A stretch of 47,207 nt of DNA from positions 1 through 47,207 of the forward strand of contig DATMZR010000041.1 of assembly GCA_035573435.1 (NCBI GenBank), given 5' to 3'. The position numbers were made by a program, and so were the translations under genes. Within the stretch, counting starts at the first letter, position 1; every line of letters begins with the position of its first letter. Positions 41-18,895 of the stretch are shown piece after piece. The notes beneath the pieces were generated by a model, which saw only the letters and a list, made by a program, of their open reading frames with translations, was not told where the DNA came from and searched no databases. Origin of the DNA: Solirubrobacterales bacterium. GTDB taxonomy: Bacteria; Actinomycetota; Thermoleophilia; Solirubrobacterales; 70-9.

Positions 41-457
41 ATGTCGCAGGAGAACGTGGAGATCGTGCGGACGTTGGCAGAGGGTTTCCAGCACCGCCAG
101 CACGAGCGGGCGTTCGAGTTCTACGACCCCGAGATCGAATGGGATGCGTCGCGGGTTGTGGGGGTGCTTCCGGATAGCGCGGGCGTCTACCACGGCCACG
201 AGGGGGTCAGGGCGTTCTGGCGGACCTGGCTCTCGGCGTGGAGCGATCTCCGGTTCGAGATCCAGGACGTGGTGGACGCGGGCGACGACGTTGTGCTGCT
301 GATCCGCAACCAGCGGCAATGGGGACGCCACAGCGGCCTTGAGACGGAGTTCCCGTCCTACGCGATGGTCTTCACGTTTCGTGACGGGAAGGTGATCCGC
401 CAGCGGCACTATCTCGACCAGGAACAAGCCCTCGAAACCGCCGGGCTCTCGGAGTAG
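41..457 (+). CDS. SnoaL-like / NTF2-fold family protein
   Basis: A 138-residue protein with the pattern of the SnoaL-like branch of the NTF2 superfamily. The N-terminus (MSQENVEIVR) is followed by a helical segment with FYDPEIEWD, then YHGHEGVRAFWRTW near residues 50–63 and a C-terminal strand ending FRDGKVIRQRHYLD. These proteins form a cone-shaped alpha+beta barrel and may be small-molecule isomerases, hydrolases or binding proteins; no specific substrate can be read here. It lies 3 nt after an upstream paralogue and 3 nt before a truncated one. The GGAG at the end of each gene doubles as the Shine-Dalgarno of the next, so the array is probably translated as one message. Confidence 0.85.
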   Translation: MSQENVEIVRTLAEGFQHRQHERAFEFYDPEIEWDASRVVGVLPDSAGVYHGHEGVRAFWRTWLSAWSDLRFEIQDVVDAGDDVVLLIRNQRQWGRHSGLETEFPSYAMVFTFRDGKVIRQRHYLDQEQALETAGLSE

Positions 458-460
458 GCG

Positions 461-625
461 ATGTCGCAGGAGAACGTGGAGATCGTGCGGGCGCTCAACG
501 ACGCCTTCAATCGCGGTGACGCCGCCACGGCGGGGCAATGGATCGACCCGGAGATCGAGGTCGAGACCTGGACGGCCTTGGGGGCAGCGCGGATCTGCGT
601 CGATGTGCGCGGATGTGCGCGCTAA
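461..625 (+). pseudogene. truncated SnoaL-like gene, cut off by a repeat
   Basis: The ATG and first codons (MSQENVEIVRAL) are nearly identical to the preceding SnoaL-like gene, and about 43 residues look genuine (through DPEIEVETWTALG). The frame then enters the 10-bp direct repeats at 591 and stops at the TAA inside the hairpin arm (623–625). The result is a 54-residue product lacking about 85 residues of the fold, so it is almost certainly non-functional. It marks the point where repeat copy A inserted or recombined. Confidence 0.75.
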
Positions 626-657
626 CGGGCACCAGAGCGGCGCTGGTGCCCGTTAGC
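591..657 (+). repeat. interspersed repeat copy A (decamers + hairpin, no tRNA part)
   Basis: Three 10-bp direct units (GGATCTGCGT, CGATGTGCGC, GGATGTGCGC; 591–620) are followed by a perfect 15-bp inverted repeat: GCTAACGGGCACCAG at 621–635, a 7-nt loop, and its complement at 643–657. The same arrangement occurs at 2677–2753, 3283–3344 and 5241–5317, always in this orientation. Those copies carry a tRNA-Val fragment on the left; this one lacks it and instead abuts a broken SnoaL-like gene. The hairpin has no U-tract and is unlikely to be an ordinary terminator. Confidence 0.85.
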
Positions 658-736
658 CCGGCGGGCTCCGAGTGCCGACCGGCTTCCGCTCGTTGCCCGC
701 GCGATCGAGGGGCCATGCCTGCTTTCGGAAATGACG

Positions 737-765
737 TTGACCGCCCGCAGCTCCGGTGGTAGGTT
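737..765 (+). promoter_or_regulatory. sigma70-type promoter of the RCC1-repeat gene
   Basis: TTGACC at 737–742 and TAGGTT at 760–765 are separated by exactly 17 bp. The same boxes and spacing, with closely similar flanks, occur at 5398–5426 ahead of the second secreted repeat protein. The conservation in two places and the ideal spacing support a real housekeeping-type promoter. It lies 35 nt before the GTG chosen as the start, which rules out the longer reading frame that begins at 731 inside the promoter. Confidence 0.7.
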
Positions 766-799
766 CGGCCAGAAGGCCAACGCGGGGAGAGGAGTGAGC

Positions 800-2572
800 G
801 TGGAGAGGGCGAAGGTCGGGGCGAAGCGGACCCGGCGGCGGATTCCCGTCAAGGGCCGTCTTGCTCCTCGCCGGCTTGGCCCCTGCACCGCGATCGCCAT
901 CGGAGCCGCCCTCTTGCTCCTGGGTCTCGCCGCTCCGGCCTCCGCCGCAGCCCCGCCGACCGGAACCGGAGGGACCTCGATCGCCACCGCCCCGCCCGGG
1001 GCGGCGGCCGGGAGCGTGAGCGCCGGCAGCGACCACACCTGCGGCGTGAGGATGAACGGCGCCGTCGCCTGCTGGGGCGACAACGGCCGGGGCGAGGCGA
1101 GCCCGCCTCCGGGCAGCTTCACTGCGGTGAGCGCCGGCGGCCAACACACCTGCGGCCTAAGGACGAACGGGACCGCCGCCTGCTGGGGCGACAACGGCTG
1201 GGGTGAGACCACCCCGCCCTCGGGCAGCTTCACCGCGGTGGACGCTGGCGGCGACCACAGCTGCGGGGTGAGGACGAACGGGACCGTCGCCTGCTGGGGC
1301 TACAACCTCAATGGCCAGGCCACCCCGCCCGCGGGCAGCTTCACCGCGGTGAGCGCTGGCTTGAATCACAGCTGCGGGATGAGGACGAGCGGCGCCGTGG
1401 CCTGCTGGGGCTGGAACGACTACGGCCAGGCCACCCCGCCCACGGGCACCTTCACCGCCGTCAGCGCCGGCAGCGCCCACAGCTGCGGGGTGAGGACGAA
1501 CGGGACCGTCGCCTGCTGGGGCGACAACCTCGAGGGCCAGGCGAGCCCGCCCGCGGGCACCTTCACTGCGGTCAGCGCCGGCGCCAACCACACCTGCGGC
1601 CTAAGGACGAACGGGACCGCCGCCTGCTGGGGCTACAACCTCAAGGGCCAGACCATCCCGCCCGCGGGCACCTTCACCGCGGTGAGCGCCGGCGGCTACC
1701 ACAGCTGCGGGGTGAGGCCGAATGGCGCCGTCGCCTGCTGGGGCGGCACCGGCAAGGGCCAGGCCACCCCGCCCGCGGGCACCTTCGACGGCCCCGCAGT
1801 CGAGGCAGGAGACCAGTTCACCTGCGGCGTGGAGCACGTTGGCACCCTCGCCTGCTGGGGCTCGAACTCCTTGGCCCAGACAACCCCGCCCGCGGGCACC
1901 TTCACGGCGGTGACCGCAGGCGGCCTCCATGCCTGCGGGCTACGCACGGTCGGCACCATCGCTTGCTGGGGCGCCAACGGCAGCGGCCAGGCCAGCCCGC
2001 CCGCGGGCACCTTCACGGCGGTGAGCGCCGGCGCCTACCACAGCTGTGGAGTGAGGACGGATAGCGCGGTCGCGTGCTGGGGTCGCAACAACTTCGGCCA
2101 GGCGACTCCGCCGGCGGGCACCTTCACCGCGGTGAGCGCGGGCAACGGCCACAACTGCGGAGTGAGGACGGACGGCACAATCGGCTGCTGGGGCACCAAC
2201 AGCAGCGGCCAGGCGACTCCGCCGGGGGGCACCTTCTCCGCGGTGAGCGCGGGCAACGGCCACAACTGCGGCGTGAAGACGGACGGAACTCTCGCCTGCT
2301 GGGGCCGCAACGACTTCGGCCAGGCGACTCCGCCCGCGGGCACCTTCACGGCGGTGAGCGGGGGCGCCGCCCACACCTGCGGCCTACGCACCAACGGCAC
2401 GCTCGCCTGCTGGGGCCGTAACAGCTCCGGCCAGGCGACTCCGCCCGGAGGGAACTTCACAGCCCTGTCCGCCGGGGGCGACCACACCTGTGGGATGAGG
2501 ACCGACGGCACTGCCGTCTGCTGGGGCAAGAACACGAGCGGCGAGGCCACCACCCCACCTGGCTTCGGCTAA
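800..2572 (+). CDS. secreted RCC1-repeat beta-propeller protein
   Basis: A 590-residue exported protein. A basic N-terminus precedes a hydrophobic segment (GAALLLLGLAAPASAAA) that reads as a signal peptide ending near residue 48. Fourteen tandem units of about 37 residues follow, each with the pattern AVSAG..H.CG.RTNG...CWG.N..GQATPPAGTFT. This is the RCC1-like repeat, and fourteen units would make two seven-bladed propellers. The conserved CG and CWG cysteines of every unit could form disulfides outside the cell. The GTG start is preceded by a GGGGAGAGGAG-like Shine-Dalgarno and parallels the start of the gene at 5464. Function is unknown; such propellers usually bind proteins or polysaccharides. 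Confidence 0.9.
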   Translation: MERAKVGAKRTRRRIPVKGRLAPRRLGPCTAIAIGAALLLLGLAAPASAAAPPTGTGGTSIATAPPGAAAGSVSAGSDHTCGVRMNGAVACWGDNGRGEASPPPGSFTAVSAGGQHTCGLRTNGTAACWGDNGWGETTPPSGSFTAVDAGGDHSCGVRTNGTVACWGYNLNGQATPPAGSFTAVSAGLNHSCGMRTSGAVACWGWNDYGQATPPTGTFTAVSAGSAHSCGVRTNGTVACWGDNLEGQASPPAGTFTAVSAGANHTCGLRTNGTAACWGYNLKGQTIPPAGTFTAVSAGGYHSCGVRPNGAVACWGGTGKGQATPPAGTFDGPAVEAGDQFTCGVEHVGTLACWGSNSLAQTTPPAGTFTAVTAGGLHACGLRTVGTIACWGANGSGQASPPAGTFTAVSAGAYHSCGVRTDSAVACWGRNNFGQATPPAGTFTAVSAGNGHNCGVRTDGTIGCWGTNSSGQATPPGGTFSAVSAGNGHNCGVKTDGTLACWGRNDFGQATPPAGTFTAVSGGAAHTCGLRTNGTLACWGRNSSGQATPPGGNFTALSAGGDHTCGMRTDGTAVCWGKNTSGEATTPPGFG

Positions 2573-2590
2573 GCGCGCAGCGCCTTCCTC

Positions 2591-2753
2591 GATGGGCGCG
2601 GCTGGTTTCGAACCAGCGACCTCTCGCGTGTGAAGCGGTGACACCTCAGGCACGGATGGGCGTCGTTGCGCGCATCGGATGTGCGCGGATATGCGTGGAT
2701 ATGCGCGGATGTGCGCGCTAACGGGCACCAGAACGGCTCTGGTACCCATTGGC
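2591..2753 (-). repeat. tRNA-Val-derived composite repeat, copy B
   Basis: Bases 2591–2637 match 6774–6820, the 3' 45 nt of the intact tRNA-Val plus 2 nt beyond, over 47 bp. The match breaks inside the anticodon stem. A linker with CCTCAGGCACGGATGGGCG follows, then four 10-bp units (2677–2716) and an imperfect hairpin (2717–2753, two mismatches). It is in the same orientation as the tRNA and as copies C and D. The T-arm and anticodon loop are intact, but the 5' half of the tRNA is missing, so this is not a functional tRNA gene. Confidence 0.85.
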
Positions 2754-2768
2754 CGTAACGTTGACCTC

Positions 2769-3098
2769 GTGCGCATCTGGGACCTCGAGCCGGACGTTCT
2801 CTGCGATCGCCACCTGCTTGGCGAACACCGTGAGCTCCACGCCGTGTGGTCGATTCTCACCGCCGGCAAGCGCGGCTATGCCAACCATCCGGAGACGCTG
2901 CGCTGGCGCGGAAGGCTCAAGGCCCTATACGTGCGACACGACGGGCTGGTCGAGGAGATGAAACGCCGCGGGTTTGACCACCGCAGTCCGCTCGATCCCG
3001 CTCTCGCGACCGGGGCGATCCGTCAAACCGAGCTGCTCGAAAGCGTGGAGCGTCAGCGGGAACGGCTCCGCCTCCGCGATTGTTCCTGCTTTTCATGA
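2769..3098 (+). CDS. pyrimidine-dimer DNA glycosylase/AP lyase family protein (DenV-like)
   Basis: A 109-residue protein whose N-terminus (VRIWDLEPDVLCDRHLLGEHRELHAVW) matches the bacterial branch of the T4 endonuclease V (DenV) family. In T4 DenV the N-terminal amine starts base excision at thymine dimers, and Arg22 and Glu23 are key active-site residues. The corresponding H15, R21 and E22 are present here in HLLGEHREL. Later family features include HPETLRWRGRLKALYVRH and EEMKRRGFDHRSPLD. The GTG start at 2769 puts the conserved RIWDL at the extreme N-terminus, as the mechanism needs. It lies directly after repeat copy B and probably protects against UV damage. Substrate specificity is inferred from the family only. 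Confidence 0.85.
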   Translation: MRIWDLEPDVLCDRHLLGEHRELHAVWSILTAGKRGYANHPETLRWRGRLKALYVRHDGLVEEMKRRGFDHRSPLDPALATGAIRQTELLESVERQRERLRLRDCSCFS

Positions 3099-3121
3099 GC
3101 GGGTAGGCCACCGTGGGTGGG

Positions 3122-3177
3122 GATGGGCGCGGCTGGTTTCGAGTGAGCCCGGAGGGCGAGCGGGTGAGAAACCAGCC
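3122..3177. repeat. partial tRNA-Val fragment forming a long inverted repeat
   Basis: GATGGGCGCGG followed by CTGGTTTCGA at 3122–3142 repeats the 3' end of tRNA-Val (acceptor strand and half of the T-arm). Instead of completing the T-arm, 27 nt intervene before GAAACCAGCC at 3168–3177, which is the exact complement of GGCTGGTTTC at 3131–3140. It looks like a broken or rearranged copy of the tRNA fragment next to copy C. No gene is seen between 3099 and 3448; the stretch is filled by this element, copy C and about 100 bp without recognisable features. Confidence 0.6.
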
Positions 3178-3195
3178 CCGACACCGGTCATGAAG

Positions 3196-3344
3196 GATGG
3201 GCGCGGCTGGTTTCGAACCAGCGACCTCTCGCGTGTGAAGCGGTGGTCCCTCAGGCACGGATGGGCACCGCTCAGTCCGTCGGGATGTGCGTCGATGTGC
3301 GCGGATGTGCGCGCTAACGGGCACCAGAACCGCGCTGGTGCCCG
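3196..3344 (-). repeat. tRNA-Val-derived composite repeat, copy C
   Basis: Bases 3196–3242 match the same 47 bp of tRNA-Val found in copy B. The linker (CCTCAGGCACGGATGGGC) follows, then three 10-bp units (3283–3312) and a hairpin whose 10-bp core CGGGCACCAG (3318–3327) pairs with CTGGTGCCCG (3335–3344). The three bases after the tRNA fragment differ from B and D, while CCTCAGGCAC is constant. No promoter-like boxes follow the hairpin, unlike copies A and D. Confidence 0.85.
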
Positions 3345-3448
3345 ATCACTCGGTGGCGGTGGGTGCTACTCCGCAGCCCGGCGGCTTCGAGGGCGGCGGG
3401 CGCCGCTTCGCTCGCTTCCCAATTGCTCTCGCCGATTCGGGCCTACGG

Positions 3449-4084
3449 CTAGACAGTCCAGCTTCTGAGGTGCTTGGCCGCGGTGCCGTTGTTTCCGAGT
3501 TGATACACGCTCAGTCCAGCCGGGGAGAAGGTGAATGGGTCGAACGGCTCCGCTTCGATCTCCTCCAGATCATCTAGCTTCGCAAGGCCGACGGTGACGT
3601 GCGCGATGAACTTCGATCCGCTGTGGTCGGGCACGTAGGCCTCGATGTATCCGATCGTCTGGTCGTTGATCTCGGGCTCGGCCTCGGTGCGGACGTAGGC
3701 GTCGGCCGTACCACCGCTCTCGGTGAACGGCTTCACCGCCTCGATCAGGCGCGCCTGCAGATCGAGGACCTCCGGCCCCGGCTGCACGACGATCCCGGTC
3801 AGCCCGAGGCCGGGTGCGGTGTCCATGTGCGCGAGCTTCACCCCGGTCAGCTGGAGCTTGCCGACGTCGACCTCATCGACAATCTGCCCGACGGCGTCGA
3901 AGACCTCGTCGAGATCCGCCGTTCGCACATAGCGTTGGAGGGTGGTGATGTGGGGCTGGTGATGCTCGTCGAGGGCGAAGCCGTCGGGGTAGCTCGCGCG
4001 CATCGTCTCGTTGGCAGCCTTCGCCCGCGACATCATCGTCTGGTCGGGGTCGATCAGGATGTCGATCGCGGTCAGGTCTCCCAT
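3449..4084 (-). CDS. 2H phosphoesterase family protein (2'-5' RNA ligase-like)
   Basis: A 211-residue protein with the two HxTx-type motifs of the 2H phosphoesterase superfamily, HITT at 45–48 and HVTV at 162–165, separated by the usual distance for two pseudo-symmetric lobes. Members hydrolyse or form 2'-5' or cyclic phosphodiester bonds in RNA or nucleotides; which of these applies cannot be told. The start ATG is 2 nt after the stop of the tyrosine-phosphatase-like gene, so the two are probably translationally coupled. The pair lies between tRNA-fragment repeats C and D, which suggests accessory cargo. Confidence 0.8.
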   Translation of the reverse strand: MGDLTAIDILIDPDQTMMSRAKAANETMRASYPDGFALDEHHQPHITTLQRYVRTADLDEVFDAVGQIVDEVDVGKLQLTGVKLAHMDTAPGLGLTGIVVQPGPEVLDLQARLIEAVKPFTESGGTADAYVRTEAEPEINDQTIGYIEAYVPDHSGSKFIAHVTVGLAKLDDLEEIEAEPFDPFTFSPAGLSVYQLGNNGTAAKHLRSWTV

Positions 4085-4086
4085 CG

Positions 4087-4896
4087 CTAGCTTGCCTCAG
4101 TAAAGGTCGTCCGCAGGTTGTCGATCGTCGCCGAGTCGAGTCCCAGGCCGTCGGCGAAATAGCGGTCGATGTCCCCATACTTCGAGTTCATCTCGGCGAT
4201 CGCTGCGTCGAGGTACTCCTCCTGGACTCCGAGCACCGGGGCCAGGACCGCCGGATCACCGCCGAGCGAGGCGAAGTGGTCACTGACGGGCTTGGTCATC
4301 GGCAGGAGCTGCTCGTTGGTGAGCATGAAGTCGGCGAACACATCCTCGCGGCTTACTCCCAGCAGCAGGAGCAACGACGCCGCCGCCCAGCCGGTGCGGT
4401 CCTTGCCGGTGGTGCAGTGAAACAGCGCCGGCCGGTGCTCGGGGTTCGCGATCTGCTCGAAGAACTGCTTATAGCCGGCGCGCGCGCTCGGGAGGTCGAT
4501 CATCTCGCGGTAGCTGCCCTGGAACAGACTCAAGGCCTTGCCACCGCCGAGTGCCTGCTCGGCTGCCGGCGGATCGTCGATGACCTTCAGCAGCATCGCC
4601 GGGGCGGCATCGGTGGAGTCGGCGAGGATGTCGATCGCGACGTACTCAACTCCGCCGGGCACGACGTTCGGCTGCGCCGCGCGCTCGGCCTCGGTGCGGA
4701 AGTCATAGACGGAGCTGATACCGAGCTTGGCGAATGCGGATGCGTCTGCTCCTCCGAGGTTCGCGAACTCGGCTGAGCGATAGATCAGGCCGGATCGCAC
4801 CTTGCCGTCCGGGGTCGGCCATCCGCCGAGGTCGCGTAGGTTCGGGATCGTCGCGATCGAGATGCTTTGACCGGGCTCTGTGATTGGCGACACCAT
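4087..4896 (-). CDS. tyrosine/serine protein phosphatase (MptpB/SIW14-like)
   Basis: A cysteine phosphatase with the P-loop HCTTGKDRTG (C-x5-R) and the N-terminal NLRDLGGW and FRTEAERA motifs of the Y_phosphatase3 family, which includes mycobacterial PtpB. A cytoplasmic phosphatase acting on phosphotyrosine, phosphoserine or a phosphoinositide-like substrate is expected. The start is uncertain. A TTG at 4923, an ATG at 4896 and a GTG at 4893 share one frame, and AAAGGGGAG lies just before the last two, so the 4893/4896 region is preferred. It leads a two-gene operon with the 2H phosphoesterase. Confidence 0.85.
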   Translation of the reverse strand: MVSPITEPGQSISIATIPNLRDLGGWPTPDGKVRSGLIYRSAEFANLGGADASAFAKLGISSVYDFRTEAERAAQPNVVPGGVEYVAIDILADSTDAAPAMLLKVIDDPPAAEQALGGGKALSLFQGSYREMIDLPSARAGYKQFFEQIANPEHRPALFHCTTGKDRTGWAAASLLLLLGVSREDVFADFMLTNEQLLPMTKPVSDHFASLGGDPAVLAPVLGVQEEYLDAAIAEMNSKYGDIDRYFADGLGLDSATIDNLRTTFTEAS

Positions 4897-5006
4897 CTCC
4901 CCTTTCTCGTGTCCGGAGGTCAAGCCCGGGTCGCGGCGCTCGACCCGAGCCGGGTGTTCGCCCGCACCCTAGCGGCGAGCCCGCATTGGTTGTGGCGCCC
5001 TCAACA

Positions 5007-5042
5007 CCTACGGATCAGGCAAGTCCTACGGATTAGGCAAGT
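5007..5042. repeat. 18-bp tandem duplication
   Basis: CCTACGGATCAGGCAAGT at 5007–5024 is followed directly by CCTACGGATTAGGCAAGT at 5025–5042, with one mismatch. It lies in the 540-bp gene-free stretch 4924–5463. That stretch also holds a short GCCCG–ATAG–CGGGC–TTTT hairpin at 5134–5151 (a weak terminator candidate on the plus strand), repeat copy D and a promoter. No coding potential is convincing there. Confidence 0.7.
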
Positions 5043-5155
5043 CGCACTTTGGACGATGTGGAGGAGTGCGGCTTTCGCGTGAAGCGAGAGCCTGGTTGAG
5101 CGGTTGATCGATGGTCGACAGGGCCTGAACGCGGCCCGATAGCGGGCTTTTGCGC

Positions 5156-5317
5156 ATGGGCGCGGCTGGTTTCGAACCAGCGACCTCTCGCGTGTGAAGC
5201 GGTGTTCCCTCAGGCACGGATGGGCGTCGTTACGCGCATCGGATGTGCGCGGATGTGCGTCGATGTGCGCGGATGTGCGCCCTATCGGGCACCAGAACCC
5301 GGCTGGTACCCGTTAGC
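5156..5317 (-). repeat. tRNA-Val-derived composite repeat, copy D
   Basis: Bases 5156–5201 match the tRNA-Val 3' portion over 46 bp. The CCTCAGGCACGGATGGGCG linker, four 10-bp units (5241–5280) and a hairpin follow (core CGGGCACCAG 5286–5295 with CTGGTACCCG 5303–5312, one mismatch). From the hairpin to the downstream GTG start the sequence is homologous to the stretch after copy A, including the promoter boxes. It is the copy nearest the intact tRNA gene, 1.6 kb away. Confidence 0.85.
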
Positions 5318-5397
5318 GCAGGCGACCCCGGGCGAGCCGCTTTCGGCTCGTCTCGCCGGTGCACGGGCGGTGCCATGCCCGCTTCCGGATGAAGACG

Positions 5398-5426
5398 TTG
5401 ACCACCCCGGCCTCCGGTGGTAGGTT
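5398..5426 (+). promoter_or_regulatory. sigma70-type promoter of the delta-60 repeat gene
   Basis: TTGACC at 5398–5403 and TAGGTT at 5421–5426 have a 17-bp spacer ending in CCTCCGGTGG. The copy at 737–765 ends in GCTCCGGTGG before the same TAGGTT. The two promoter regions are clearly duplicates, so the two secreted propeller proteins are probably expressed together. Confidence 0.7.
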
Positions 5427-5463
5427 CGTGCGGAAGCCCGCGGAGTAGGGGAGAGGAGCGAGC

Positions 5464-6729
5464 GTGGAGAGACCGCAGACCGTGCGGACGCCGACAGGAC
5501 GGCGGGTGGCTGCCCTGGGCTCCCTGGCGGTAGTGCTCCTACTTGGCGCAGTGGTGGCAGCGCCGGCACAAGCCGCCGCCGGCGACCCCGACCCGACCTT
5601 CTCCGGAGACGGCAAGCTGAGAACCGACTTCGGCGCCTCGTTCAGCGTGGCGACGGCGGCCGTGCGCCAGGCGGACGGCAAGATCGTCGCGGTGGGAGGG
5701 GCCGATGGGAACTTCCTGGTGGCTCGCTACAACCTTGACGGCTCGTTCGACGCGAGCTTCTCCGGCGACGGCAGGGATCAGACCAACTTCACGGTCTCGG
5801 ACATCGCGACCGACGTGGCACTCCAGGGCAATAAGATCGTCGTCGTCGGGTTCAGCACGACCAACGATGGCGGCGACTTCGCGCTCGCCCGCTACAACCC
5901 GGACGGCTCCCTCGACCCGAACTTCTCGGGCGACGGCAAGCAGATGACCAACTTCGGGAGCGGCGACGGGGCGACCGGGGTGGCGCTCCAGGGCGGAAAG
6001 ATCGTCACGGTCGGCTTCGGCGGCAGCCTTCGCGACTTCGCGCTGGCCCGCTACAACTTGAACGGCTCGCTCGACACCAGCTTCTCCGGCGACGGCAAGC
6101 AGACAACCGACTTCGGGGGCTTCGACACGGCCACCGGGGTGGCCCTCCAGGGCGACGGCAAGATCGTCGCGGTCGGCAGCGCAGGCGGGGGTGCCACCAG
6201 CGATGACTTCGCGCTCGCCCGCTACAACCCGAACGGCTCGCTCGACACCAGCTTCTCCGGCGACGGCAAGCAGGCAACCGACTTCGGGGGCTCCGAAGGG
6301 GCGCAAGGAATGGCGCTCCAGACGGACGGCAGGATCGTCGCGGTCGGGAACAGCGGCGGCGGCGACTTCGGGCTCGCCCGCTACAACACCGACGGCTCGC
6401 TCGACGCGAGCTTCTCCGGGGACGGCTTGCAGACGACCGACTTCCTCTTCGGGGCCGACGACGTGGCGAACGACGTGGCCATCCAGGCGAACGGCAGGAT
6501 CGTCGCGGTCGGCAGTGCAGGCGGGGGCGCGACCGGTAATGACTTCGGGCTTGCCCGCTACAACACGAACGGATCGCTCGAGACGAGTTTCTCCGGGGAC
6601 GGCAGGAAGCGGACCGGGTTCGGCGGCTCCGACGGTGCGACCGGAGTGGCGCTCCAGGGCGACGGCAAGATCGTCGCGGCTGGCGTCGGCAACGGCGAGT
6701 TCGCGCTGGCTCGCTATCTCGGAGGCTGA
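5464..6729 (+). CDS. secreted delta-60 repeat (DUF5122-type) beta-propeller protein
   Basis: A 421-residue exported protein. The signal peptide has an RRVAALGSLAVVLLLGAVV core and a likely AQAAA cleavage region near residue 40. Seven units of 50–57 residues follow, each with D.SFSGDG..TDFGG, VALQ.DGKIVAVG and FALARYN. This is the delta-60 repeat, and seven units would close one seven-bladed propeller. The GTG start has GGGGAGAGGAG about 5 nt upstream. The gene follows repeat copy D and a promoter nearly identical to that of the RCC1-repeat gene. Its role is unknown; an extracellular or surface-binding function is inferred. It ends 46 bp before the tRNA-Val 3' end. Confidence 0.9.
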   Translation: MERPQTVRTPTGRRVAALGSLAVVLLLGAVVAAPAQAAAGDPDPTFSGDGKLRTDFGASFSVATAAVRQADGKIVAVGGADGNFLVARYNLDGSFDASFSGDGRDQTNFTVSDIATDVALQGNKIVVVGFSTTNDGGDFALARYNPDGSLDPNFSGDGKQMTNFGSGDGATGVALQGGKIVTVGFGGSLRDFALARYNLNGSLDTSFSGDGKQTTDFGGFDTATGVALQGDGKIVAVGSAGGGATSDDFALARYNPNGSLDTSFSGDGKQATDFGGSEGAQGMALQTDGRIVAVGNSGGGDFGLARYNTDGSLDASFSGDGLQTTDFLFGADDVANDVAIQANGRIVAVGSAGGGATGNDFGLARYNTNGSLETSFSGDGRKRTGFGGSDGATGVALQGDGKIVAAGVGNGEFALARYLGG

Positions 6730-6775
6730 GAACTCCTCCCGCCCTGACGGGGGAAGGGTGCAGGCACTTTGCGGA

Positions 6776-6847
6776 TGGGCGCGGCTGGTTTCGAACCAGC
6801 GACCTCTCGCGTGTGAAGCGAGCGCTCTCCCACTGAGCTACGCGCCC
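6776..6847 (-). tRNA. tRNA-Val (anticodon CAC)
   Basis: Read on the minus strand, 72 nt fold into a complete cloverleaf. The acceptor stem is GGGCGCG/CGCGCCC with discriminator A, the D-stem is GCUC/GAGC, and the anticodon stem CUCGC/GCGAG carries loop UUCACAC (anticodon CAC, reads GUG). A five-base variable loop precedes the T-arm GCUGG–UUCGAAA–CCAGC. No CCA is encoded. Its 3' portion is duplicated three times in the 4.2 kb beyond its 3' end, as expected of a tRNA gene used as an integration site. Confidence 0.97.
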
Positions 6848-6907
6848 GGGTGGCCCGATGATAGGACGCAAGGCGCCGGGCGGCGCCGGCGCGGCACCTG
6901 CGGCCGG

Positions 6908-7567
6908 CTACTGGTCCGACGAATAGTTGAAGGTCGACTCGAAGCCACAGCTGCCCGTGTACTCGAACCGAAGCGCTCCATCCTCAACGCTCAGCTGGTC
7001 GGCGTAGAGCTCCCGGCCGGAGCGGTGGTGACCGGGGATGATGCAGGTCACAGGCTCCTGGTCGGGCACCGGCTCGCGGATCCGCAGCGTGACCTGGCCG
7101 CCGGCGCGGAGCCAGCTGCGCCCGGAGGTGTGCTCGATCTCGATCGGAACGGCACGCACGCCGAGCGGGTTGCTGTCCTTGAACGCCCACGGGAATTGCT
7201 TCAGCGGCGTCCCCCCGAGTCGGCCACCGAAGATCTCGGCAAGCGCCTCGCGCTGGCCCTCGTCGCCGCGCTCGTCGAGGTAGAGCCAGAAGGTCCAGGG
7301 GGAGCCGGGCTCATCGTCGCTGTAGCGAAGGGCGAGGACCACGTTGAGCCCGGACAAGTCGATCTCCCCCGCACGTCCGCGCTCGATTACCCAGGAGAGC
7401 ACGCCCATGCAGACCCCATAGGTTGAGCGACCCCCCTTGCGGTCGCCGATGCTGCGGCAAGGACAGATCGCCTCGCAGTTGCACGACTCCAGGTAGGTCC
7501 CGGAAAGCTGCCAGGGGAGGTGGTCGCCCACGGGGACGAGCGTAACGGCGCCGCCGTCTGGCCGCAT
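6908..7567 (-). CDS. DUF1326 domain protein
   Basis: A 219-residue protein with the DUF1326 signature near the N-terminus: SGTYLESCNCEAICPC, with cysteines at 29, 31, 35 and 37. Later family blocks include GVCMGVLSWVIERG and an ALAEIFGGRLGG segment. The function of DUF1326 is unknown; the clustered cysteines suggest metal binding. The ATG at 7567 has no clear Shine-Dalgarno, and an in-frame GTG at 7531 is an alternative start. It is a single-gene unit between tRNA-Val and the SRP RNA. Confidence 0.85.
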   Translation of the reverse strand: MRPDGGAVTLVPVGDHLPWQLSGTYLESCNCEAICPCRSIGDRKGGRSTYGVCMGVLSWVIERGRAGEIDLSGLNVVLALRYSDDEPGSPWTFWLYLDERGDEGQREALAEIFGGRLGGTPLKQFPWAFKDSNPLGVRAVPIEIEHTSGRSWLRAGGQVTLRIREPVPDQEPVTCIIPGHHRSGRELYADQLSVEDGALRFEYTGSCGFESTFNYSSDQ

Positions 7568-16483: not shown

Positions 16484-18895
16484 TTGCTAGGCGCCTACGC
16501 ATCCGTCACGGTGCTGATCGCCGGCTCGATCGCGGCGGGCCAGGCGATCCTCTCGTTGTGCGGCCGCCGCGAGTTCACGTGGCTCTCGGGGCCCGTTGGC
16601 CTGGCGGCCATCCTGGTCGTGAGCGGGATCGCGATCCGGCTGCCGGGGCACGGGACCGCGGTGGCGATCGCCCTGGCGGCCCTATTCGTCCTCTCAATTG
16701 CGAGCCTCGCAAGGCGAGGGCGAGTGCCGGATGGGGACCCGGCAAACGTCCGCAGCATGGACGCGAGGACGGTGCGATGCAGGGATGCAGAGCGTTTGTC
16801 GGGGGCGCATCCGGCGGTCGCCCTGATCGCGGCTGGGCTCGCGCTCCTCCTTGCCTCGATCCCGTTCATCGTCAACGGGCGGGTGGGGATCCTCGGCGTC
16901 GGGTTGATCAACGACGACATGGCCTCCCACCTGTTGATCGCGGACTGGCTGAACACGCGGGTTGGGCAAACGCCGGGCCTCGTGGAGGGCGGCTACCCGG
17001 TGGGGCCACACGCGCTGGCGGCCGGGCTCAGCGAGGGACTGGGGACTGGACTGATCGAAGCGTTCGCCGGCATCACGCTCGCCATCCCCGTGCTCACCGC
17101 GCTGCTCGCGTTCCAGGCGCTGCGCGACCTGCGACCTCTTGGCCGAATCCTCGTCGCGACGCTGGTGGCGCTTCCGTATCTCGCCGCCGCCTACCTGGCA
17201 CAGGGGGCGTTCAAGGAGCCGATCGAGGCCCTGTTCCTGCTCGGGTTCGCGCTCCTCTTGCCCGGTGCCACCACTGCCCGGCGCGGACTGCCGCTCGCGG
17301 TGATCGCCGCGGGCGCCGTCTACGCCTACAGCTTCCCGGGCCTCTTCTGGCTCCTGGGCGCGGCGGCGATCTACATAGCTGTGCGGCTGATCAGGGGAGC
17401 GCGCCCATGGTCGCTGGGCAGCGGGACCCGCCCGGCAGTGGTCTGGGGGGGAGCTGCGGCGGTGGCCGGGGCGCTCGTGATCCTGATCGCGCCCGACATC
17501 GGAAGGCTCGTCGACTTCACGGACTTCAGGGCCTTCCGCAACTCGACAATCTCGAGCGGGCTCGGCAACCTGCGCCATCAGCTCTCGCCGCTGGAGGCGC
17601 TGGGGATCTGGCCGGCAAGCGACTTCCGGCTCTCGGCGAGCGCCGCCAGCGTGCCCGCGCCCGTCTTCTACCTCGCCGCGCTGGTGGCCGCGGTCGCATT
17701 GGCGGTCGCGTTGCCGCGCTGGCTACGCCGCCACGGCGAGGCGGTGCCCGCCGCGCTGGCCGCGGCGATCGTCATCTACCTCGGGGCGCTCGCCTTTGGA
17801 ACGGTCTACACCAGCGCCAAGGCCCTGGCGATCGCCGCCCCCGTCATTACGCTCATCACCTTCGGCGGCCTGCTGGGCCACGAGCGCGCGGAGAGCACAC
17901 GCTCGCTGCGCTCCTGGCGCCCCGGGCTCGCGCTGGCACTTGCGGCGGGCATCGCGCTGTCCAGCTTCCTGGTCCTGCGCCAGGCTCCCGTCGCCCCCGA
18001 TGATCACGCCGATCAGCTGGCAGAGCTGCGGCCGCTGGTTCAGGGGAGAAAGGTCCTGTTCCTCGGCCGCGACAACTTCATCTCCTACGAACTGCGGGGC
18101 TCGCGGCCGTTCACGGCCGTGCGCAACTACTACGACCCCAACTACGTCCGGCCCAACCTGCGGCTCAAGGACGTGTTCCGGAAGTTCGACTTCGATTCGG
18201 TGGCCGCGGCGAAGCTGGGGCGCTTCCCGTACGTGATCACGACCCGGGCCCCGTACGCCAGCGGACCGCCCCCTGCCTTCGAGCCACTCCGCGCGACCAA
18301 GGACTTCGTGCTCTGGAGGAGGACGGAACCGGTGGGGCAGCGGCGCACCTTGGACGAGGCGGACCGGCCCGGTGCCCCGCTCGATTGCTCGAGCCGGGAT
18401 GGACGGCGCTTGAGGCGAAGCGGCGGCACGTCAACCGTGTTCGCGGCGCCACCTGTGATCGGCGGTGCCTGGTCGCCGAGCTCCACGGTGGAGAGCGGGT
18501 CCGTCGCCTCCTTGTCGTTGAAGCTGTCGCCGGGCCGCTGGTGGGTCTCGATCCAGTACGACTCCACCAGGGCGCTTCAGATCCGCGCGCCGGGGATGGA
18601 TGCGACCGTGCCGGCGAATCTCGATTACCGGGGCTCGGTCCCGTTCTATGCCGCGGGCGACCTCACCGTCCAGCGCCGCGGCCCGATTCAGTTCACGGTC
18701 AGCGTCGAGCGACCGCCCATTGCGGGTCGCCTGCTCGGCGTCCACTCGGTGGCACATCTGGGGACCATCGCCGCCACGGCCGCCGCGGGCGGTCATCCGG
18801 GCGGGCCGATGCCCGGCTTGGGCGAGCAGGCCATCCCGCTCCGCCGCGCCTGCGATCGCTACGTAGACTGGTACCGGCCGCGGGGCGGCGGCTGA
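16484..18895 (+). CDS. large polytopic membrane protein with extracytoplasmic C-terminal domain
   Basis: An 803-residue protein. The first 500 residues hold about a dozen hydrophobic helices, with a soluble loop near 90–110 and the motif NDDMASHLLIADWLN after the fourth helix. Acidic residues in the first outer loop of a multi-helix protein are typical of GT-C glycosyltransferases, so lipid-linked sugar transfer is possible but not established. The last 300 residues look soluble and beta-rich (LSLKLSPGRWWVSIQYDS). The TTG start has TACGAT 8 nt upstream and no Shine-Dalgarno. A single-gene unit between asd and the antiporter. Confidence 0.75.
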   Translation: MLGAYASVTVLIAGSIAAGQAILSLCGRREFTWLSGPVGLAAILVVSGIAIRLPGHGTAVAIALAALFVLSIASLARRGRVPDGDPANVRSMDARTVRCRDAERLSGAHPAVALIAAGLALLLASIPFIVNGRVGILGVGLINDDMASHLLIADWLNTRVGQTPGLVEGGYPVGPHALAAGLSEGLGTGLIEAFAGITLAIPVLTALLAFQALRDLRPLGRILVATLVALPYLAAAYLAQGAFKEPIEALFLLGFALLLPGATTARRGLPLAVIAAGAVYAYSFPGLFWLLGAAAIYIAVRLIRGARPWSLGSGTRPAVVWGGAAAVAGALVILIAPDIGRLVDFTDFRAFRNSTISSGLGNLRHQLSPLEALGIWPASDFRLSASAASVPAPVFYLAALVAAVALAVALPRWLRRHGEAVPAALAAAIVIYLGALAFGTVYTSAKALAIAAPVITLITFGGLLGHERAESTRSLRSWRPGLALALAAGIALSSFLVLRQAPVAPDDHADQLAELRPLVQGRKVLFLGRDNFISYELRGSRPFTAVRNYYDPNYVRPNLRLKDVFRKFDFDSVAAAKLGRFPYVITTRAPYASGPPPAFEPLRATKDFVLWRRTEPVGQRRTLDEADRPGAPLDCSSRDGRRLRRSGGTSTVFAAPPVIGGAWSPSSTVESGSVASLSLKLSPGRWWVSIQYDSTRALQIRAPGMDATVPANLDYRGSVPFYAAGDLTVQRRGPIQFTVSVERPPIAGRLLGVHSVAHLGTIAATAAAGGHPGGPMPGLGEQAIPLRRACDRYVDWYRPRGGG

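What the first reader, a model, noticed from the sequence alone, without database searches (positions are those of the whole stretch)
591..5317. Composite repeat: tRNA fragment, linker, 10-bp units and hairpin
Beyond the tRNA part, each copy has CCTCAGGCACGGATGGGC, three or four 10-bp units of GGATGTGCGC type and an inverted repeat around GGGCACCAG. The motif GATGGGCG occurs at both ends of the tRNA fragment. The parts are always in the same order, and copy A has lost the tRNA part. The structure resembles a small non-autonomous, tRNA-derived element, comparable in outline to SINEs, which would be unusual in bacteria.
Basis: partly seen in the sequence, partly recalled or inferred. Interest (0 to 1): 0.7.

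Follow-up and report, generated by a model that had tools for sequence, protein, structure and literature searches.

The report
Tandem integration scars at tRNA-Val
The repeat is not a SINE-like retroelement but the attachment-site end of small mobile DNA modules that inserted one after another into a valine tRNA gene, and the same end structure recurs at other tRNA genes across an order of soil bacteria.

Summary
The composite repeat is real: three full copies (2591-2747, 3196-3346, 5156-5312) and one copy without its tRNA part (591-657). The tRNA fragment is the 47-bp 3' part, cut at the anticodon loop, of the intact tRNA-Val(CAC) gene at 6776-6847(-). All copies lie in one orientation downstream of that gene; other copies sit on contigs C16, C10 and C29. 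This is the signature of repeated site-specific integration into a tRNA gene. Linker, 10-bp units and palindrome form an attachment-site arm. A covariance model of units plus palindrome matches 65 of 232 Solirubrobacterales genomes; many matches lie behind 3' fragments of about nine different tRNAs, at spacings stepping by roughly one helical turn. Fourteen of 16 arm-linked and 4 of 5 tRNA-Val-linked integrases fall in one clade, against 2 of 15 others. The window's modules carry one or two genes and no integrase; the genome encodes only two Xer-like recombinases. Best reading: an accretion array of integrase-less (CIME-like) cassettes that depended on an integrase in trans. SINE reading rejected; 'small non-autonomous element' kept. 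The kind is known; the arm architecture and tiny modules look like a new variant. Integrase binding and mobility are inferred, not shown.

The parts
6776..6847 (-). intact tRNA-Val(CAC): integration target, 3' end towards the array
   Evidence: ARAGORN; Rfam RF00005 71 bits
5464..6729 (+). module D cargo: DUF5122 beta-propeller repeat protein
   Evidence: Pfam PF17164
5156..5201 (+). core D: displaced tRNA-Val 3' fragment
   Evidence: identical to the tRNA
5209..5225 (+). linker box D (CTCAGGCACGGATGGGC)
   Evidence: slot of the GCAGG box in relatives
5242..5279 (+). 10-bp units D (four)
5286..5312 (+). palindrome D
   Evidence: covariation
4087..4923 (-). module C cargo: tyrosine phosphatase family
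   Evidence: PF13350
3449..4084 (-). module C cargo: 2'-5' RNA ligase superfamily (below Pfam cut-off)
   Evidence: PF13563 24.4 bits against 27
3196..3242 (+). core C
3250..3266 (+). linker box C
3284..3311 (+). 10-bp units C (three)
3316..3346 (+). palindrome C
3122..3142 (+). 21-bp core stub; 3122-3166 is identical to a stretch at the end of a C16 module
2679..3098 (+). module B cargo: pyrimidine dimer DNA glycosylase (mechanical ORF; by eye it probably starts near 2770)
   Evidence: PF03013
2591..2637 (+). core B
2645..2661 (+). linker box B
2678..2715 (+). 10-bp units B (four)
2723..2747 (+). palindrome B
731..2572 (+). module A cargo: RCC1-repeat protein
   Evidence: PF13540
592..619 (+). 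10-bp units A (core and linker lost)
621..657 (+). palindrome A
461..590 (+). SnoaL-like reading frame cut off where arm A begins
41..457 (+). SnoaL-like gene
   Evidence: PF12680

Best explanation
Each composite is the arm-bearing junction (called attR here) left by site-specific integration of a small circular module into the 3' part of tRNA-Val(CAC). The 47-bp tRNA fragment is the core where strands exchange; integration rebuilds the tRNA at the array's proximal end and leaves the old 3' part behind. Linker box, three or four 10-bp units and palindrome are the module's own attachment arm, most likely binding sites for the amino-terminal domain of a tyrosine integrase and for a bending or directionality factor. 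Repeated rounds gave a one-way array: core-arm-cargo, core-arm-cargo, ... tRNA. The modules carry one or two cargo genes and no integrase, so they are CIME-like and needed an integrase from another element. Shown: anatomy, orientation, target, boundaries, order-wide recurrence, link to one integrase clade, absence of an integrase from the held genome. Inferred: that the integrase binds units and palindrome, that the modules moved in trans, that they can still move.
For: Core identical to the intact neighbouring tRNA and ending at the anticodon loop. Same-genus G001 has the same arrangement at tRNA-Ala: four extra 42-bp 3' fragments, all one orientation, three with arms, no PF00589 on that contig. 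R1 (units + palindrome) matches 65 of 232 genomes. Of 64 places checked, 43 have a tRNA T-arm within 330 bp upstream, against 91 of 2000 random stretches. Distances cluster at 116-121, 130-132 and 108-109 bp, with single cases at 99 and 161; concentration 0.77 at period 10.5 for 39 of the 43, own copies left out. A TTTGCAGGGATTTC box sits at fixed places on both sides of the core in many arms. Palindrome covaries: 28 double-changed cells against 10.6 in shuffles. 14 of 16 arm-linked and 4 of 5 tRNA-Val-linked integrases in one clade (100/100) with 2 of 15 others. In G003 (same genus), G042 and G021 an integrase frame runs into tRNA-Val(CAC) itself. G071: tRNA-Ala, one integrase, then four arms in a row.
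Against: No empty site: the gene beyond the distal core on C16 was not found beside tRNA-Val in the fetched tRNA-Val loci of relatives, and its family homologues lie elsewhere. The joining of C16, C10 and C41 into one island is inferred; an integrase could lie in an unassembled gap. 21 of 64 arm places show no T-arm. Two arm-linked integrases are outside the clade and Xer-like; two clade members have no arm on their contig. The window's core-to-unit distances (77-87 bp by my counting) are shorter than the common class. Nothing here measures binding or excision.
Confidence: 0.8

Rival explanations
1. Graveyard: the array arose by site-specific integration of integrase-bearing elements, but integrases and most contents were deleted in place, and the modules are immobile remnants rather than cassettes that ever moved alone.
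For: Copy A lost its core and abuts a truncated SnoaL frame; stub at 3122; degenerate cores on C10 and C29; no integrase in the held genome beyond two Xer-like ones; G044 and G029 have integrase fragments beside such arms.
Against: Cores B, C and D are identical to the tRNA and arms are well kept, odd for old debris; G001 has a second integrase-less array with two of its cores identical to the tRNA 3' part.
Confidence: 0.4
2. Units and palindrome are an origin of transfer or replication (iterons plus inverted repeat) carried beside the attachment site, not integrase arm sites; this would let tiny modules be mobilised.
For: Direct repeats followed by a palindrome fit that outline (general knowledge).
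Against: Constant distance to the core with near-helical steps ties the units to the attachment site; they follow one integrase clade.
Confidence: 0.15
3. SINE-like retroposon with a tRNA head, copied through RNA.
For: tRNA-like 5' part, fixed order of parts.
Against: Copies only behind the matching tRNA gene, one orientation; other tRNAs carry the same tail in relatives; no Rfam match except the intact tRNA.
Confidence: 0.02
4. A transcription terminator or small RNA gene shared by duplicated genes.
For: Strong inverted repeat; leader region shared by modules A, D and one on C16.
Against: By eye no T-run follows the hairpin; G-U pairs are few (10 of 166 paired cells by my count), as expected for a DNA palindrome; spacing to the tRNA fragment is conserved.
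Confidence: 0.04

Closest known systems
Accretion arrays with CIMEs (cis-mobilizable elements; Streptococcus ICE-related islands; defined in PMC5704250, passages read)
   Same: Attachment sites kept, integration and transfer genes lost, tandem at the 3' end of a target gene.
   Different: Modules here hold only one or two genes and share a distinctive arm (10-bp units plus palindrome).
Dehalococcoides ssrA genomic islands (PMC3146451, passages read)
   Same: Many tandem islands behind one RNA gene, bounded by repeats of its 3' end; 15 islands without an integration module.
   Different: There a serine recombinase and tmRNA with a 20-bp repeat; here a tyrosine-integrase clade, many tRNAs, and a conserved arm.
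tRNA-gene islands as mapped by Islander (PMC4383910, abstract)
   Same: Intact tRNA at one end, displaced fragment at the other.
   Different: Islander insists on an integrase in each island; these modules have none and would be passed over.
Lambda-type attP arms (PMC4880445, passages)
   Same: Short arm sites outside the core with other sites between; integrase with an extra amino-terminal DNA-binding domain. That lambda's P' sites are adjacent is recalled.
   Different: A covarying palindrome follows the units, and unit sequence differs between arm types at the same core.
Integron gene cassettes (recalled)
   Same: Arrays of one-gene modules in one orientation made by a tyrosine recombinase.
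   Different: The site is a tRNA core with a double-stranded arm, not attC; no IntI.

Membership tests
tRNA-targeted site-specific integration array | intact tRNA at one end and displaced 3' fragments downstream | tested here: met
tRNA-targeted site-specific integration array | same orientation of all copies and common core boundary | tested here: met
   own 21-bp stubs and the degenerate C10 and C29 cores are shorter or altered
tRNA-targeted site-specific integration array | empty site in a relative | tested here: inconclusive
   no syntenic empty site found
CIME (cis-mobilizable element) | no integration genes in the module | tested here: met
   no integrase on C41 or C16; only two Xer-like recombinases in the held genome
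CIME (cis-mobilizable element) | no transfer genes in the module | tested here: inconclusive
   no relaxase or transfer family among the proteins scanned, which were not all of C16 and C10
CIME (cis-mobilizable element) | functional attL and attR, mobilised by accretion | not testable with these tools
   needs excision assay
Lambda-type attachment arm | linked integrase has an extra amino-terminal domain absent from Xer | tested here: met
   conserved amino-terminal block before the core-binding domain in the full-length rows; domain identity as arm binder is inferred, no Pfam arm domain was hit
Lambda-type attachment arm | integrase binds the repeats | not testable with these tools
   needs footprint
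SINE | dispersed copies with target-site duplications | tested here: not met
   copies confined to tRNA-Val array or contigs with the same core, in array arrangement where placed
Integron cassette | attC site and IntI | not tested
   no dedicated attC search; the genome's two tyrosine recombinases match Xer models best

The most novel reading that the evidence does not exclude
Solirubrobacterales keep integron-like cassette arrays at tRNA genes: integrase-less modules of one or two genes with a full attachment arm are inserted in trans by one clade of tyrosine integrases, some fused to a carboxy-terminal Mrr_N-like winged-helix domain that reads the palindrome. Two arm types on the same tRNA-Val core would let different integrases serve one array.
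Probability: 0.25. Interest if true: 0.7.

Novelty: new variant of a known kind. Interest (0 to 1): 0.45.

Why it matters
Integrase-less modules are missed by island finders that demand an integrase. The arm gives a sequence handle (model R1) to find module ends in a large, poorly cultured soil group, and it makes a clear test possible: does one integrase move small cassettes in trans, turning tRNA genes into cassette platforms? If the modules prove to be dead relics, the value is mainly annotation.

Tried and rejected
SINE or RNA element: rejected on copy placement, orientation and Rfam. Phage origin of the arm: exact arm pattern 0 stretches in viral contigs. Wide spread: the same exact pattern gave 9 stretches in genome contigs; the 3 outside Thermoleophilia (Stenotrophomonas, Spongiactinospora, Chloroflexales) show no closing palindrome by eye and are taken as chance. 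DNA search with copy D's arm found own copies and only weak matches in 2 of the other 49 family genomes, so a covariance model was used. Empty site by synteny: failed. Wing-helix domain as palindrome reader: 8 arm-linked integrases have it, but that of G071, whose arms have units and palindromes by model R1, does not, so it stays an idea. Promoter of cargo and RNA transcription: not tested. Structure prediction not run: the tool admits only window proteins and loci of other fetch tools, and the clade integrases come from the fetch from genomes.

Dropped rows: one search used 39 of the 43 distances (own copies left out); one search used 41 of 43 (C16 and G031:C7:20414 left out); one search used 38 proteins chosen from the loci fetched, not all integrases of the genomes (short fragments in G044, G029 and G166 and the G060 frames left out). 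The 15 arm rows of G025 include opposite-strand echoes of the same palindromes. tRNA identities of fragments were read by eye except where ARAGORN found the intact gene.
Full report
What is there. The window is contig C41 of a 2.58-Mb, 43-contig genome (97.39% complete). At 6776-6847 on the minus strand lies an intact tRNA-Val(CAC). Downstream of its 3' end, towards position 1, the 3' part of the same gene recurs at 5156, 3196 and 2591, 47 bp long, ending at the anticodon loop; bases 2-47 are identical in all four places. A 21-bp stub lies at 3122. Each full copy is followed by a linker, 10-bp units and an inverted repeat; copy A at 591-657 has only the last two and begins where a SnoaL-like frame is cut off.

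What lies between. Module A has an RCC1-repeat protein, B a pyrimidine dimer glycosylase, C a weak 2'-5' RNA ligase match and a tyrosine phosphatase, D a DUF5122 repeat protein. Modules A and D and one on C16 share about 250 bp from the arm into the leader of a repeat-protein gene. No integrase was seen among the proteins scanned on C41 and C16, and the whole genome has two tyrosine recombinases, both best matched by Xer models.

The rest of the array. Contig C16 holds a further full copy (6928-7064), a stub (4211) and a core at 17440 without the tRNA 5' half, all in the orientation that would place C16 beyond the window's left end; its flank CAGGCACTTTG resembles the flank of the intact tRNA. 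C10 and C29 carry altered cores. C10 and C16 also show a second arm type: GATTACC units with a GGGCAGAAAG palindrome. That C16, C10 and C41 form one island is inference.

The arm in relatives. A pattern of three units hit 11 of 232 genomes of the order, reversed control 0 of 232, and most hits had a palindrome a few bases further on, though the pattern did not ask for it (exceptions G091 and G027:C244). In the 16-sequence alignment the palindrome forms 86.5% standard pairs with 28 double-changed cells, against 10.6 in shuffles and at most 10 when slid. The model built on it matched 65 of 232 genomes at E up to 0.01. Of 64 places examined, 43 have a tRNA T-arm motif within 330 bp upstream, against 91 of 2000 random stretches of the same loci. 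Read by eye, the fragments come from tRNA-Ala(CGC), Ala(TGC), Cys, Val, Thr, His, Pro, Arg and Ser; ARAGORN found the intact partner nearby for several. Distances to the units cluster at 116-121, 130-132 and 108-109 bp, a step of about one turn of DNA; the statistic is suggestive only, as arms share descent. A box close to TTTGCAGGGATTTC lies about 40 or 29 bp after the core and about 30 bp before the units in many arms, and about 20 bp before the core in many (14 and 15 of 41 with at most 4 mismatches; on the left the mean is no better than shuffles). The window's linker CAGGCACGG takes that slot, but scores poorly against the box.

Order. Contigs of the matching relatives are titled Solirubrobacterales, Thermoleophilia, Thermoleophilaceae or Actinomycetota; lineage of the order.

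Integrases. In G003 (same genus), G042 and G021 an integrase frame runs into tRNA-Val(CAC) itself. In G071 tRNA-Ala(CGC) is followed by one integrase and then four arms over 56 kb, with one PF00589 match on that contig. In G031 an arm at C74:48397 and tRNA-Val at 120787 enclose about 72 kb with an integrase at 115447. In same-genus G001 tRNA-Ala(CGC) is followed by four extra 42-bp fragments without any PF00589 on the contig. In a tree of 38 recombinases, 14 of 16 arm-linked and 4 of 5 tRNA-Val-linked ones lie in a 20-row clade with support 100/100, with 2 of 15 not linked to an arm; two arm-linked ones are Xer-like and outside. Clade members share an amino-terminal block; 8 arm-linked ones also have a carboxy-terminal domain like Mrr_N.

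How it works. Site-specific integration at a tRNA gene rebuilds the gene and leaves the old 3' part as a displaced fragment (PMC4383910, abstract). Lambda integrase binds arm sites through its amino-terminal domain and core sites through the rest (PMC4880445, passages). By analogy the 10-bp units are arm sites, and box and palindrome sites for partners. Repeated integration at the rebuilt tRNA gives a one-way array. The window's modules have kept core and arm but have no integrase, which is the CIME definition (PMC5704250, passages), and the closest described picture is the Dehalococcoides ssrA array, where 15 islands lack integration modules (PMC3146451, passages). Whether they moved alone in trans or are relics is open; I give relics 0.4.

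Cargo exchange. The module C ligase-like protein is 63% identical to one near an arm in G029, a C16 glycosyltransferase 66% to one near an arm in G018, and a SnoaL protein occurs in the G001 array.

Novelty. Literature searches for Thermoleophilia with integrase, genomic island and tRNA gave one paper (PMC9903846, listing only); Solirubrobacterales with related terms gave no paper holding that name among the 8 listed. The library holds open-licence papers only. I call it a new variant of a known kind.

Noticed in passing
L046 (C10) about 2300-2390(-); L044 (C16) 16846(-) and 4183(-): Second arm type at the same tRNA-Val core: GATTACC 10-bp units followed by a GGGCAG...CTGCCC palindrome.
   Followed up: partly
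L094:3785-5416, L218:4821-6479 and six other integrases: Tyrosine integrases with a carboxy-terminal Mrr_N-like winged-helix domain, confined to the arm-linked clade in the set examined.
   Followed up: partly
window 3122-3166: 45-bp stretch (core stub plus GTGAGCCCGGAGGGCGAGCGGGTG) identical at the end of a C16 module; by eye followed by the reverse complement of the stub.
   Followed up: no
window 660-841, 5394-5520; L044 near 6740-6900: Shared leader upstream of RCC1 and DUF5122 repeat-protein genes in three modules: same front, different cargo.
   Followed up: no
window 5690-5766: ARAGORN tRNA-Ala call inside the DUF5122 reading frame, probably false.
   Followed up: no
L128/L075, L063, L073: Integrase frames end inside tRNA-Val, with the tRNA core read as peptide GWFRTSDLSRV.
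   Followed up: no
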